A DNA stretch of 64,000 nt from Streptomyces yatensis (lineage in GTDB: Bacteria > Actinomycetota > Actinomycetes > Streptomycetales > Streptomycetaceae). The notes beneath the pieces are model-generated. The model was not told the DNA's origin. It was given only the letters and a program-made list of their open reading frames with translations, and ran no database searches. Location: the NCBI RefSeq assembly GCF_018069625.1, contig NZ_CP072941.1, positions 9,982,001 to 10,046,000 of the forward strand, written 5' to 3'. A program made the translations under genes and the position numbers. Position 1 is the first letter of the stretch. Each line of letters begins with the position of its first letter. Below are positions 49,358 to 64,000 of this stretch, piece after piece.

Positions 49358-51628
49358 GTGCGCGATGACATGTGCGTTGCGGAGAGCGATGGGGATAGGG
49401 TTTGCCCGGAGGTGAGCCCTGTGCCCGCTGAGGACGAGTTGTTCAGCGCTGTCGACGCGCTGCTGGAGCAGGTCGCCCAGGACGATCTGCCGGCACCCGC
49501 GGAGCGCAAGAGGCTGCGCGAGGCCGCGGGGCTGAGCCAGGCCGGGATCGCCAAGGCGCTGGACATCCGCCGGGAAGCGGTGGGCAACTGGGAATCCGGC
49601 AAGACCGAGCCGCGGCAGCCGAAGCGCGCCGCGTACGCCCGGCTGCTGAAGGGCCTGGCCGCCCGCTTCCCCGCCCCCGCGGCGGGCGCGGCACCCGCCG
49701 CCCCCGAGCCGTCACCGCCCGCCCAGCCGACACCGGCGCAGACCCCGCCCCCCGGCCAGGGCCATTCCCCCCAGCGGAGTCCCCAACGGCCCGGGGAGGC
49801 CGCCGCACAGGACACGACCCGGCAACTCGCCACGGCCCCGGCACAGCGGGCCCGCCCGCCCCGGCCGTCCGCATCGCGGCGCCCGGACGCGATGGCGCGG
49901 GTAGCGGGGGCGGCCGGGACCACCGCCGCCACCCCCGCCGCGGACCCGCGCTTCGCCCACGGCCCGCTGGCCGTCGTGGATGTCGTGGACGGCCAGGTCT
50001 GTGCGTACTGCCCCGGCGGGCTGGTCCTGGACATCCCGGCCAAGTCCCTCCCGTCGCTGGTGGAGTGGACTCTGGCCGAGGCGCGGCTGGGCGCACCGCG
50101 GCTGAACCGCAACGGCAGGGACGCCGACCCCGTTCTGGTGCTCACGGACGCGGCCGCGCTGCGCCTCGGCCTCCCGGCCCGGCTGACCGACGAGGAGCGG
50201 CGGGCCGGGAGGCTGTCCGAGGGCCACAAGGTCGTCGAGGAACTGGAGCGGGCCGACTGGCGGCTCACCCGGCGCGGGCTCGGCCCGTGGGCGCGCATCT
50301 ACCGTCCCGCCGAGGGCTCGCGGCGCGCCTGCGTCCAGCTGTGCGTCCTGGGCTGGGAGGCGCTCGATACGCGCTCCTGGGGGGAGGCCGCGCAGTTGCC
50401 GCCCGCCGATCTGGCGCACCTGCTGGGCACCTACGCCGACCGCGTCATGACGCCCTGTGGCTCCACCGCCGTCACCGGCCTGGAGCTGATGACCGCTCTG
50501 CACCCGCCCACCCGCGCCGGTGAGCCGGACAGCGCCGGCCGGCGGCACGGCGAGCACAACCCCGGCTCGCTGGGCACCCGGCCGGTGGAGTGCGCCCCGC
50601 CCGAGGCCCCGGACGGCCATCCACTCCTGGCACATCTTCCGCGCTTCCACCAGCGCACCCCCGACGAGGTGCTGGTGGAGGAGGCATACGACTGGGCGCG
50701 CCCGCTCACCGACGACGAGTGCGCCAAGCGCTATGTGGTGGGCATCGACGTCAACATGGCCTTCGCCGCGGCCGCCAACGGCACCGTCTTCGGCCTCGGC
50801 GAGCCCGTGCACGCCAAGCGGCCGCCGTTCGACCCGAAGATCCCCGGCTCATGGCTGGTGGACCTCTCCCACGTCGAACTGGATCCGCGCCTGCCGAGCC
50901 CCTTCACCCCGACCGGGGAGCGGCCGACGGGCCCCGCCTGGTACGCCACGCCGACCGTCGCCTACGCCGCCGAACTCGGTTACGGCGTCGCCCCCATCGA
51001 GGCGTACCTCCGCCCGGACAACGGCCGCTACCTGGACGCCTGGTACACTCGGCTGCGGGACGCCTATATCGCCACCATGGCCGACCTGGGAGTCACCGCC
51101 GGCATGGGACCGCGGGAGTTCCTGACCGCCATGGACGGCCACCGGCGGGCCGATCCGCAGATCGCGATCGTTCTCTCGGCGATCAAGGCGACCGTCAAGG
51201 GCGGCATCGGGAAGCTGCGCGAACGCCCCCGCGGCGGTGGCTGGCGCCCGGGTCAGCCCTGGCCCGCGCTCCAGCGCCCGACCTGGCGGCCCGACATCCG
51301 CGCCGCGGTCATCTCCAAGGCGCGGGTCAATATGCACCGCAAGATGCTCAAGACGGCGGAGGCCACCGGCCAGTACCCGGTGGCCGTCCTCTCCGACTGC
51401 GCCGTCTACCCCTCGGACGGGCCCGGCCCGCTGGACTTCCTGCCCCACAAGGACGGCAAGCCGCTGCCGGGCGGCTTCCGGATCGGAGTGAGTCCGGGAA
51501 TGGTCAAGCACGAAGGCACCCAGACCACCCTGTGGGCCGAGGGCGTGCGCGAGGAGCACGGCGATGACCTCAACCTTGCCCGGTACATCAAGGACGGCCA
51601 CGTCACCGCCCCGGACAACGGAGAGTAG
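49358..51628 (+). CDS. tap: Telomere-associated protein Tap
   Basis: 756 residues, close to known Tap length (about 740). An N-terminal Xre-like HTH (RLREAAGLSQAGIAKALDIR, REAVGNWESGKTEP; about 51-85) is followed by a Pro/Ala-rich linker (about 105-185) and a large conserved body. Tap binds the telomeric 3' overhang and recruits Tpg; work on Streptomyces also ascribes to it priming/deoxynucleotidylation of Tpg. The body contains polymerase-like segments YVVGIDVNMAFAAA (about 459-472), IKATVKGGIGKL (about 609-620) and VAVLSDCAVYPS (about 674-685). The GTG start has AGGAG eight bases upstream. tpg begins 5 bp after the stop, so they form an operon. Confidence 0.93.
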   Translation: MRDDMCVAESDGDRVCPEVSPVPAEDELFSAVDALLEQVAQDDLPAPAERKRLREAAGLSQAGIAKALDIRREAVGNWESGKTEPRQPKRAAYARLLKGLAARFPAPAAGAAPAAPEPSPPAQPTPAQTPPPGQGHSPQRSPQRPGEAAAQDTTRQLATAPAQRARPPRPSASRRPDAMARVAGAAGTTAATPAADPRFAHGPLAVVDVVDGQVCAYCPGGLVLDIPAKSLPSLVEWTLAEARLGAPRLNRNGRDADPVLVLTDAAALRLGLPARLTDEERRAGRLSEGHKVVEELERADWRLTRRGLGPWARIYRPAEGSRRACVQLCVLGWEALDTRSWGEAAQLPPADLAHLLGTYADRVMTPCGSTAVTGLELMTALHPPTRAGEPDSAGRRHGEHNPGSLGTRPVECAPPEAPDGHPLLAHLPRFHQRTPDEVLVEEAYDWARPLTDDECAKRYVVGIDVNMAFAAAANGTVFGLGEPVHAKRPPFDPKIPGSWLVDLSHVELDPRLPSPFTPTGERPTGPAWYATPTVAYAAELGYGVAPIEAYLRPDNGRYLDAWYTRLRDAYIATMADLGVTAGMGPREFLTAMDGHRRADPQIAIVLSAIKATVKGGIGKLRERPRGGGWRPGQPWPALQRPTWRPDIRAAVISKARVNMHRKMLKTAEATGQYPVAVLSDCAVYPSDGPGPLDFLPHKDGKPLPGGFRIGVSPGMVKHEGTQTTLWAEGVREEHGDDLNLARYIKDGHVTAPDNGE

Positions 51629-60510: not shown

Positions 60511-63500
60511 GTGGAGAGCACCGGGCAGCACAGCGACTCGCTTGTCGTGCTGACCGCACTGGACGTGGAGTACGAGGCGGTTCGGGCACACCTGGCCGAT
60601 CCGCGGCCACAACTCCACCCGAGCGGCACCGTGTTCGAGGTGGGACGGCTCGACGGTACGCCGTGGCGGGTGGCGCTTGCCGAGCTCGGCGAGGGCAACC
60701 AGGGCGCGGCCGTGCTGACCGAGCGGGCGATCGCCATGTTCCGCCCGCGCGCCGTGGCATTCGTCGGGGTGGCCGGGGCGCTCAAGGACGATATCGAGCT
60801 CGGGGACGTCGTCGTGGCCACGCATGTGTACGCGTACCACGGTGGCAAGGACGAGGACGGCGAGTTCCACTCCCGCCCGAGGGTCTGGCCGGTGCGTCAG
60901 GAACTCGACCAGCTCGCCCGCTTCGCCCGCAGGTCCGGTTCCTGGACCGGGCTGCTGCCGGAAGGCCCGCCCGGTGCCTCCCGTCCGGCCGTCCACCTCA
61001 AGCCCGTGGCCGCCGGGGAGGTCGTCCTGAACTCGGCGGACTCGGCGCTGCGACGGCAACTGCGCCGGAACTACCAGGACGCCGCCGCCATCGAGATGGA
61101 GGGCGCGGGCGTCGCGCAGGCCGCCCACCTCAACGCCGCGCTGCCCGCCCTGATCGTCCGCGGTATCAGCGACCGGGCCGACGGGGAGAAGTACGACGCC
61201 GATGCCGAGGGCTGGCAGTCGCGCGCCGCCCGCAACGCCGCCGCCTTCGCCTTCGCCGTCCTCCGTGAGCTGCCGCCCGGCGGCGACCCGGCCCCACTCG
61301 GGCCGGGGACACCCATGGACCCGGCGCCGGAAGGATTCCCGGACGGGCCGTCGGCTCCGGCTCCCGCTCCGCCATCCGCTCCGGCCCCGCATCCGGATGC
61401 GGGGACCCCACCGGATGACACCGGCCCGGCCGCACACCGCCAACTCCAGCGCTGGGCACAGAGGTTCTCCGACGACCTGGATCTCGTGGACTCCCCCCGC
61501 CCGGGCCGCGGAACCGGCTCCCCGCCACAGCTCAGCGGCGGACTCTATGTGCGGCGCGCCGTCCAGGACCGATTGGTGGAGGCCCTCTACGACGGTGATC
61601 CGAAGGCGGTCCTGGTCACCGGGGACGCCGGGAACGGCAAGAGCAGCCTGTTGTGGGGCCTCGCGCGGGATCTGACCGCCCTGGAGGACGCCGAGGTCTT
61701 CCTGGTGAACGCCGCCTGGCTGCTGCGCCCCGTGAGCGGCGCCCCCGGAACCCCCATGCTGGCCCCCGCGACCGTGGTGTCCGGGGCGACGCACGCCCGG
61801 ACGCGGGGGCGTACACCGGTCGTGCTCCTCGACACCGCCGATCTGCTGCTCCACGACGACTACCACGAGATGGCGCTGCTCGACCTGTGCGAGGACCTCG
61901 CCGCCGCCGGTGTCCGCCTGGTGCTGACCTCCCGGCCGGAGGAGGCGAACCGGCTGCGCACCGGCTTCGTCCGGATGTCGCTGGGCCCGTACGACGACAG
62001 CGAGATCCCCCACGCCATCCGTGGACACGCCGCGCTCTACTGCCCCGACGCCGTTCCCCGGGACGACGAGGCACGGGTACGGAGGCTGATGGAGCCCGTG
62101 GCCCGCGGACTGCCGGTGCGCGAGGTGTGCAGAAGCCCTCTCCAGTTGCGGCTGCTGTTCGAACTCGCCCGGGACGACGGGGCGTTCCCCAGCGCCGAGA
62201 TCGACGCCACCGGCCTCTACCGCCGCTACTGGGACCACCGGGTCGTCACCGACCGCCGCCATCACGGCAACCGGAGCGCCACCGCGCCGGAGGACCTCTC
62301 CGCACTCACCGGCGCGATCGCCGTCGTGCTGATGTCGGCCGGCCGGACCGAGCTGTCACGCGAGGAGCTGGTCGACCGGCTCACCTCGGCACACGGCGGC
62401 CCACGCCCTTCCCCGTCGTACGAACCGGCCCGTGTCCGGTCGTCCCTGGAGCTGCTGATCGACCGGGGTGTGCTGGCCAGGGGAGCCTCGGACGGTATCC
62501 ACTTCTTCCACCAGACCATGTTCGAGTACGCGGCCGCGCGTGGCCTGCTGCACCTCAGCGGGGCACGGGCGCTGCTGTCGCTGTGCGAGTGGGTCGGGTC
62601 GCATCCCCGTGACTTCTTCGTCGGGGCGATCCTCGAACAGCTCCTCATGCTCGCCGCCGGGTCCGAGAGATATCGGGGCCCGGTACGGGACACGCTGATG
62701 CGGATGGCGGCCCACGCGGACGCCGTCATCCTGCACACCGTCGCCGTGGCCGTCGCGGCGCGGAACCCGGCCGTGGGCGTGTCCGTCGAGCCGCTGCTCG
62801 CGACGGCGCCGCACGGTGTCGCCCGGCGGTACGCGGTCCTGGCCCCGACCGTACGCGACACGGACGTCGACGCCCTCCTGCCGCAGCTCCGCGGGCTGTG
62901 GGAGAGGAAGGAACCCAGCCTGCGGGAGGCCGTGCTCGAAGCGCTGGAGCGGCTGGCCGCCCAGAACGCGCTCACGGTCCACGCCGCCCTGGCCGACTGG
63001 GGCTGCGTACGGGAACTGACGGGGCGCCGTACGGGCGGCGCGGGCATCGAGGTCCTGCCGCGGCTGCTCGTGCTGACGTCACACGTCGATGTGGCATCCG
63101 CCCGGAAGGGCCTCATGGAGATGCTCGACTTCGCCCTGTCCCGGGGGCTGGCGGAGCTGGCGTCCGGCGTCATGACCCTGTGGGCCCGGCACTGGGAGAC
63201 ACTGGGCTCGCCGGAGTGGGCAGCCGCCGTCCAGGAGCGTCTCCAGCGGGTGCGCGTCGCGCCGAAGTCGTACGACGTCGAGCTCTTCCAATCGGCCCTG
63301 GCCAGGGTGCTGGCCGCCTCATGGACCCACGACCACGGACTCCCCGGTGACCACGGGCTCCCCGCCGACGCCGGTCACGGCCCCGACGGCGGTCCGGCTC
63401 CCGGGACCCATCCCTGGACGCACCGCCTCGACCACGCCGTGGCGCTGCTCGAAGCGGACGACCACGACACCGTGGGCAACGCCGGACTCATCGCCGCCAC

Positions 63501-64000
63501 AGCGGTCCTGGCCACGCTGCCGCACGGCCACTGGGCCATCGAGGCCACCCTCGACCGCTGTCTGGAGATCGGCGGGCAAGCAGCGCTCCACGCACTGCAG
63601 CACCGGATGGTCTTCCCCCAGTTGCTCCGCGCCGACTGCGCCGCCGCGGAGAGCCTCGTCCACCGGCTCGCGGTCATGCTGAAGGCCCTGCCCTGCCCCG
63701 AGAACCAGCCGGTCACGCCCCCACAGCGGCGGGCACTGGTCGCCCGCCGGATCCTCGCCCACCGCGACGTTCCCCCCCACCGCGTCCGGCAGGTCCTGGA
63801 ACACTCCGGCTGGGACGCCGACTCCGACCTGTGGCTGTCCGGGGACGGTTTGGCCACGCTCCTCCTGCCGGCCGCGCTCGGCGGCCACCCCACCGCGGTG
63901 AGCCGGATCGAGAAGGCGACGACCGCCCCCGCGGCCGCCCGGAACCTCGTCCGCCGCTCCCTGCACCGGGCCGTCACGGACTCCGGTCCGCACACCGAGC
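60511..64000 (+). CDS. PNP-NACHT STAND NTPase, predicted anti-phage/conflict sensor (3' partial)
   Basis: The frame is open from the GTG at 60511 (GGGGGG nine bases upstream) to the window end: at least 1163 residues. Residues 8-255 are a nucleoside phosphorylase-fold domain: VVLTALDVEYEAVRAHL, GVAGAL (86-91), AIEMEGAG with Glu195-Met-Glu197, and GISDRAD with Asp221, the base-contacting and catalytic set of MTAN-like nucleosidases. A Pro-rich linker (about 258-310) leads to a NACHT NTPase: Walker A GDAGNGKSS (371-379), Walker B PVVLLDTADLLL (Asp441), sensor TSRPEE (473-478), and the winged-helix end motif FFHQTMFEYAAARG (665-678). The rest is helical-repeat sequence, interrupted by a DHGLPGDHGLP insertion (941-951), and probably the sensor. 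The substrate is probably a nucleotide such as ATP (inferred). Confidence 0.85.
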   Translation, partial: MESTGQHSDSLVVLTALDVEYEAVRAHLADPRPQLHPSGTVFEVGRLDGTPWRVALAELGEGNQGAAVLTERAIAMFRPRAVAFVGVAGALKDDIELGDVVVATHVYAYHGGKDEDGEFHSRPRVWPVRQELDQLARFARRSGSWTGLLPEGPPGASRPAVHLKPVAAGEVVLNSADSALRRQLRRNYQDAAAIEMEGAGVAQAAHLNAALPALIVRGISDRADGEKYDADAEGWQSRAARNAAAFAFAVLRELPPGGDPAPLGPGTPMDPAPEGFPDGPSAPAPAPPSAPAPHPDAGTPPDDTGPAAHRQLQRWAQRFSDDLDLVDSPRPGRGTGSPPQLSGGLYVRRAVQDRLVEALYDGDPKAVLVTGDAGNGKSSLLWGLARDLTALEDAEVFLVNAAWLLRPVSGAPGTPMLAPATVVSGATHARTRGRTPVVLLDTADLLLHDDYHEMALLDLCEDLAAAGVRLVLTSRPEEANRLRTGFVRMSLGPYDDSEIPHAIRGHAALYCPDAVPRDDEARVRRLMEPVARGLPVREVCRSPLQLRLLFELARDDGAFPSAEIDATGLYRRYWDHRVVTDRRHHGNRSATAPEDLSALTGAIAVVLMSAGRTELSREELVDRLTSAHGGPRPSPSYEPARVRSSLELLIDRGVLARGASDGIHFFHQTMFEYAAARGLLHLSGARALLSLCEWVGSHPRDFFVGAILEQLLMLAAGSERYRGPVRDTLMRMAAHADAVILHTVAVAVAARNPAVGVSVEPLLATAPHGVARRYAVLAPTVRDTDVDALLPQLRGLWERKEPSLREAVLEALERLAAQNALTVHAALADWGCVRELTGRRTGGAGIEVLPRLLVLTSHVDVASARKGLMEMLDFALSRGLAELASGVMTLWARHWETLGSPEWAAAVQERLQRVRVAPKSYDVELFQSALARVLAASWTHDHGLPGDHGLPADAGHGPDGGPAPGTHPWTHRLDHAVALLEADDHDTVGNAGLIAATAVLATLPHGHWAIEATLDRCLEIGGQAALHALQHRMVFPQLLRADCAAAESLVHRLAVMLKALPCPENQPVTPPQRRALVARRILAHRDVPPHRVRQVLEHSGWDADSDLWLSGDGLATLLLPAALGGHPTAVSRIEKATTAPAAARNLVRRSLHRAVTDSGPHTE

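What the first reader, a model, noticed from the sequence alone, without database searches (positions are those of the whole stretch)
60511..64000. PNP-NACHT STAND protein: candidate nucleotide-depleting immune sensor
Seen: an intact phosphorylase-superfamily domain (GVAGAL, EMEG with Glu195/Glu197, SD with Asp221) fused through a Pro-rich linker to a NACHT NTPase with complete Walker A, Walker B and the C-terminal FHQTMFEY motif, followed by at least 480 residues of helical repeats. Known: STAND NTPases act as phage sensors, PNP-like nucleosidases cleave ATP in the Detocs system, and PNP-NACHT fusions occur in fungal NLR-like proteins. Inference: ligand binding by the repeats triggers NACHT oligomerisation and activates the PNP domain to cleave a nucleotide. 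The helical sensor and its target are undescribed as far as I can tell. The position on a Streptomyces chromosome arm fits a mobile defence gene.
Basis: partly seen in the sequence, partly recalled or inferred. Interest (0 to 1): 0.85.

Follow-up and report, generated by a model that had tools for sequence, protein, structure and literature searches.

The report
Nucleosidase-armed NLR-like receptor in Streptomyces
A single large Streptomyces gene joins a nucleotide-cutting enzyme domain to the switch module of immune receptors and a long helical sensor; it looks like a well-preserved member of a known style of bacterial immune or self-sacrifice protein, but what it senses and what it cuts are untested.

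Summary
The gene runs past the window end: 1515 aa, window 60511-65058. It has an MTAN-fold PNP domain with the catalytic residues intact, a disordered linker, a STAND NTPase that folds like NLRP3, and about 800 residues of HEAT-like solenoid.

Its role as a conflict receptor rests on domain swapping. The same NTPase plus sensor carries DAC, SEFIR or unassigned N-termini in relatives. The closest PNP relative carries NB-ARC and WD40 instead. The same genome has a PNP-EAD2 protein. Two DAC-headed relatives lie within 5 kb of CBASS genes.

It is intact in this genome and seven related species, keeps its flanking sequence with some insertions, and is under purifying selection (dN/dS 0.25), sensor included.

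ATP depletion is inferred. K113 and R122, in a poorly modelled loop, are kept in most PNP homologues but not in E. coli MTAN; two Detocs-type comparators share only K113.

PNP effectors in NLR-like bacterial systems are already in print. I call this a new member of a known kind.

The parts
60511..64000 (+). PNP-STAND-HEAT gene, part inside the window (1163 of 1515 aa); the gene ends at window coordinate 65058, outside the window
   Evidence: GTG start in 8 of 8 sequences compared, this one included
60535..61275 (+). PNP/MTAN-like nucleosidase domain, residues 9-255
60568..60570 (+). Glu20, counterpart of MTAN Glu12 (its catalytic role is recalled)
   Evidence: alignment; 61 of 62 PNP homologues
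60847..60876 (+). Lys113 to Arg122 loop, candidate phosphate-binding loop
   Evidence: K or R at 113 in 51 of 62, R at 122 in 60 of 62; E. coli MTAN has D and C. Loop pLDDT under 50, so its place in the pocket is inferred
61093..61104 (+). EMEG, residues 195-198 (Glu197 = MTAN Glu174)
61168..61173 (+). Ser220-Asp221 (= MTAN Ser196-Asp197)
61276..61419 (+). Pro-rich disordered linker, residues 256-303
   Evidence: pLDDT 31-38 at residues 261-300; dN/dS 0.44 over 256-322
61621..61647 (+). Walker A GDAGNGKSS, residues 371-379
   Evidence: G374, G376, K377, S379 invariant in 16 of 16
61816..61842 (+). Walker B region with Asp441 and Asp444, residues 436-444
   Evidence: D441 and D444 invariant in 16 of 16
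61531..62670 (+). NACHT-type NTPase with helical and winged-helix modules, residues 341-720
62506..62529 (+). FHQTMFEY, residues 666-673, winged-helix motif with invariant His667
62671..64000 (+). HEAT-like solenoid (presumed sensor), residues 721 on; coding continues to 65055

Best explanation
A single-gene STAND (NLR-like) receptor. Shown: a PNP domain with an intact MTAN-type nucleosidase site, a NACHT-type switch with intact Walker motifs, and a long HEAT-like solenoid. Inferred: the solenoid recognises an invasion or damage cue, the NACHT module exchanges nucleotide and oligomerises, and clustering of the PNP domains switches on N-glycosidic cleavage of a purine nucleotide, most likely ATP or dATP. 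That would drain the pool and stop growth or kill the cell. Because the sensor evolves slowly within the clade, its cue is more likely a constant one (host state or a conserved phage feature) than a fast-changing phage protein.
For: Active-site residues E20, E197, R217, S220, D221 align with MTAN and are kept in 58 to 61 of 62 PNP homologues. NLRP3-like fold. Swap one way: 33 of 95 homologues have the NTPase-sensor core without PNP, 17 of them over nearly the full length, with six DAC heads and one SEFIR head among the 33 (Pfam column). Swap the other way: 52 of 95 have the PNP domain without a match to this core, among them P0027, the nearest PNP relative outside this clade, which has NB-ARC and WD40. 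The genome also has a PNP-EAD2 protein. CBASS cyclase and E1-E2 genes lie beside relative L014, and a CBASS cyclase 4.3 kb from relative L017. Intact in 8 of 8 sequences compared, dN/dS 0.25.
Against: None of ten neighbouring ORFs scanned is a credible defence gene (the one hit, mad2, is to a methyltransferase). No sign of arms-race evolution in the sensor within the clade. Some relatives of the NTPase carry transcription-factor domains (BTAD in L030 and L044, HTH in L035), so this NTPase is not always used in defence. The CBASS neighbours belong to DAC-headed relatives, not to PNP-headed ones. The substrate inference rests on a low-confidence loop; R122 is missing from both Detocs-type comparators, and the Verrucomicrobia relative L028 has neither residue. 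No activity was measured.
Confidence: 0.62

Rival explanations
1. Same receptor, but the PNP domain makes a signal (a freed base or a ribose phosphate product read by another protein) instead of draining ATP.
For: DAC domains, a nucleotide-signal fold, sit on the same core. Kaur et al. 2020 propose such a role for PNPase domains (PMC7159879, passages).
Against: The six DAC domains inspected all lack the RHR motif kept by the genome's own DisA, so they may not make c-di-AMP. No evident partner gene beside this gene. A review states that Detocs PNP cleaves ATP to adenine and ribose-5'-triphosphate (PMC11249213, passages).
Confidence: 0.15
2. An internal programmed-death or developmental switch of Streptomyces that responds to host damage or differentiation, not to phage.
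For: Retention with shared flanks and purifying selection in the clade. Ordinary neighbours. Regulatory N-termini (BTAD, HTH) on related NTPases.
Against: Two relatives with the full core lie near CBASS genes.
Confidence: 0.18
3. A metabolic MTA/SAH nucleosidase or futalosine hydrolase fused to an ATPase.
For: MTAN is the closest solved fold, and two homologues, P0009 and P0012, are named MTAN by their source.
Against: Scores 82.2 bits against the NCBIfam MTAN cut-off of 169 and 58.9 against 124.7 for futalosine hydrolase. The domain tree places it among PNP domains of other multidomain proteins.
Confidence: 0.04

Closest known systems
PNP (Cap17) effectors in NLR-like systems (Rousset et al. 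2023; paper not held; seen only through a review table in PMC10952713)
   Same: PNP_UDP_1 effector on an NLR-like receptor; PADLOC PN-superfamily effector profile matches
   Different: Whether their examples share this HEAT-like tail could not be checked
Detocs (PNP effector DtcC)
   Same: Catalytic residues and K113 shared with two DtcC-like plasmid proteins
   Different: Detocs is described as a 3-gene system (PMC11249213); here one gene with a NACHT-type switch. Both DtcC-like proteins lack R122. I call them DtcC-like from gene order and a 'response regulator' label
bNACHT proteins, e.g. bNACHT25 (PMC12169576, passages)
   Same: N-terminal effector, central NACHT, C-terminal helical sensor
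   Different: bNACHT25 has a PD-(D/E)XK nuclease and an NCH1 domain; no sequence comparison was made
DS-8 metallophosphatase-NACHT (PMC13092281, passages)
   Same: Single protein with a metallophosphatase and a NACHT domain; mutating either ablated defence, as reported
   Different: Different effector fold; the same paper lists a purine phosphorylase domain among predicted but unvalidated defence domains
Fungal NLRs with PNP_UDP effectors (PMC9815663, passages)
   Same: PNP_UDP_1 used with NACHT-type NLRs
   Different: Passages also describe PNP_UDP in separate genes linked by amyloid motifs; no sequence comparison was made

Membership tests
STAND / NLR-like NTPase | Effector - NTPase - repeat sensor order | tested here: met
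STAND / NLR-like NTPase | Walker A and Walker B residues and winged-helix His intact and conserved | tested here: met
   K377, D441, D444, H667 invariant in 16 of 16 and in 8 of 8
bNACHT (Pfam NACHT) | Pfam NACHT over its curated cut-off | tested here: inconclusive
   17.5 bits against 26.7 for this protein; PF05729 is listed for its 65% relative P0012; fold is NLRP3-like. No bNACHT clade assigned
Phosphorylase superfamily (PNP_UDP_1) | Pfam profile over cut-off and MTAN-type active site | tested here: met
   112 bits against 25.1; residues by alignment
Housekeeping MTAN | NCBIfam equivalog cut-off | tested here: not met
   82.2 against 169
PNP immune effector (PN-superfamily) | Match to PADLOC PN-superfamily effector profile | tested here: met
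   PDLC00759 E 2.5e-20; no curated cut-off is given for PADLOC
PNP immune effector (PN-superfamily) | Cleaves (d)ATP on activation | not testable with these tools
   needs an enzyme assay
Detocs | Three-gene system with kinase-like sensor and receiver domains | tested here: not met
   nearest genes are an alpha/beta hydrolase, a methyltransferase and an AraC/DJ-1 regulator; no receiver or kinase domain in the protein
Mobile defence-island gene | Unrelated flanks between species, or defence neighbours | tested here: not met
   each of 8 other loci shares flanking sequence, with insertions; ten neighbouring ORFs without a credible defence hit
Avs (AVAST) | Recognition of phage terminase or portal (recalled) | not tested
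   no dedicated test; the PADLOC table for this protein listed four families, none with an Avs name

The most novel reading that the evidence does not exclude
The NTPase plus HEAT-like tail is one receptor family that has been re-armed many times (PNP, DAC-like, SEFIR and unassigned heads) while the sensor stayed alignable end to end. It would thus read one general alarm cue, and the PNP head would be a dedicated nucleotide hydrolase that uses a Lys/Arg loop, absent from E. coli MTAN, to hold the phosphates.
Probability: 0.3. Interest if true: 0.62.

Novelty: new member of a known kind. Interest (0 to 1): 0.45.

Why it matters
It gives a complete, conserved, single-gene PNP-NACHT-like protein from Streptomyces, a convenient system for asking whether an NLR-like switch can gate a nucleotide-cleaving enzyme. 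The relatives with the same sensor and different heads make the question 'what does the sensor read' testable by exchanging heads for one with an easy read-out. The conserved Lys/Arg loop gives a specific test of why immune PNPs might act on nucleotides while metabolic MTAN acts on nucleosides.

Tried and rejected
Defence-island reading of this locus: ten ORFs between window 49358 and 76402 (not every ORF there; one search called 27 in its stretch, this gene included, and missed the alpha/beta hydrolase, which I added) were scanned with PADLOC. Only a methyltransferase matched, to mad2. Rejected for this locus, not for relatives.

Mobility: the protein was not found whole in phage records (2 records, partial PNP matches) or plasmids (44 records, none covering 80% of it). 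A DNA search of 60 other genomes found matches in 56; the best was 192 bits against 3896 for self, so none is a full-length match (its list of matches was cut).

Promoter and terminator consensus scan found nothing.

Tree: E. coli MTAN, E. coli AMP nucleosidase and L028 sit on long branches, so I make no claim about the root or about a single origin of immune PNPs.

GAPDH: notes of mine call a downstream gene GAPDH-like; the frame I tested had no Pfam match, so this is withdrawn.

A genus-wide count of carriers could not be made (failed calls below).

Full report
What is there. The reported frame is real and continues past the window. The window lies at 9,982,001-10,046,000 of a 10.36 Mb single contig, and the adjoining stretch completes the gene: 1515 aa, window 60511-65058. 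It is the only place in the genome where the NTPase-sensor part matched at E 0.001. The nearest genes are an alpha/beta hydrolase and a methyltransferase on the other strand upstream, and an AraC/DJ-1 regulator downstream.

Evidence that PNP is an effector. Of 95 homologues (only the 7992 candidates sharing most words were scored), 10 have both PNP and this core, 52 have PNP without a match to the core, and 33 have the core without PNP, at 30 bits per match. Of 24 with a nearly full-length core, 17 lack PNP. Precomputed Pfam gives DAC to six and SEFIR to one of the core-bearing proteins. In GTDB genomes one scan gave 51 loci. I scanned the N-termini of 40 of the 42 loci L013-L054 (L040 and L047 left out; L055 not scanned). 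Twelve of 40 reach a Pfam cut-off for an N-terminal domain: TIR 6 (three of them also trypsin), DAC 2, BTAD 2, HTH 1, PNP 1; 28 of 40 do not. In the TIR and BTAD loci the match to this protein stops by residue 948, so only the NTPase and at most the start of the tail are shared; the two DAC loci match to residue 1500 or beyond. In the PNP-domain tree the nearest branch to this clade is P0027 (support 97/91), which has NB-ARC and WD40. The genome carries two more PNP proteins, one of them PNP-EAD2.

Defence association of relatives. At nine loci I scanned 76 neighbouring ORFs with PADLOC at E 1e-15; they are a chosen part of 166 ORFs at 20 loci. Matches included CBASS cyclase, E1-E2 and E2 families, BrxHI twice and type II methyltransferase families. 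L014, a DAC-headed relative in Amycolatopsis, has an E1-E2 gene starting about 1 kb downstream and a CBASS cyclase after it. L017, a DAC-headed relative in Saccharothrix, has a CBASS cyclase 4.3 kb downstream: the profile PDLC00818 finds it at E 3.5e-127 (whose place maps to L017:19921-20889). By that profile, of eight such genomes searched, two had any match; in the other, L015's genome, it is on contig C262 and I did not place it relative to L015. There is no background control for adjacency, and none of this concerns PNP-headed genes. [quoted passage not shown]

Evolution. Each of the eight other close loci, L005-L012, shares flanking sequence with this one, with insertions; L010 has about 7.5 kb extra downstream, and L012 begins inside the gene, so only its downstream side could be seen. 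That these species form the S. violaceusniger clade is recalled from their names. This gene and seven full orthologues (L005-L011; L012 left out) are intact, with twelve key residues identical in 8 of 8. Pooled Nei-Gojobori dN/dS is 0.25 overall: PNP 0.17, NTPase 0.18, helical and winged-helix part 0.28, sensor blocks 0.19 to 0.30, a sensor loop 0.42, linker 0.44. This speaks for function and against rapid sensor change within the clade.

Substrate. In 62 PNP homologues, all chosen by similarity to this protein, E20 is kept in 61, E197 in 59, D221 in 60; K113 is K in 42 and R in 9; R122 is R in 60. E. coli MTAN has D and C there, E. coli AMP nucleosidase a gap and L. Two Detocs-type DtcC-like proteins have K at 113 but A or S at 122; a CBASS-linked SAVED-PNP has K and R; L028, a Verrucomicrobia PNP-NTPase, has S and E. 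The housekeeping control is only two proteins, and the loop is poorly modelled (pLDDT under 50). I treat 'phosphorylated nucleotide, probably ATP or dATP' as an inference at about 0.5.

Relation to the literature. PNPase domains as conflict effectors: PMC7159879 and PMC8195603 (passages). PNP in NLR-like bacterial systems: review table in PMC10952713, citing Rousset et al. 2023, which is not held. The searches I ran listed no paper that by title or the passages I saw describes this architecture in Streptomyces; the library is open-licence only and I read passages, not whole papers.

Verdict. A real, conserved, apparently functional NLR-like receptor with a nucleosidase head; new member of a known kind. 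The shared tail family and the loop hypothesis are the parts worth following.

Noticed in passing
L014:7184-13506 and L017:9098-15664; P0016, P0018, P0019, P0020, P0025, P0029: Relatives of the NTPase-sensor core carry a DAC (diadenylate cyclase) domain. All six P-listed ones inspected lack the RHR motif present in this genome's DisA; DGA is kept in three of six. L014 and L017 lie near CBASS genes.
   Followed up: partly
L063:1465-2685 and L062:1072-2235 (own genome): Two further PNP proteins in the same genome: PNP-EAD2 (406 aa) and a PNP protein of 387 aa whose C-terminal region matched no Pfam family.
   Followed up: partly
L032, L039, L049: Streptomyces STAND proteins with trypsin plus TIR at the N-terminus on a related NTPase.
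   Followed up: no
L028:1375-3594: A Verrucomicrobia protein (metagenome-assembled genome) matches PNP plus NTPase at about 30% identity and lacks the Lys/Arg loop residues.
   Followed up: no
window 49358-51628: 756-aa ORF with an N-terminal HTH_3 and no other Pfam domain at E 1e-6.
   Followed up: no
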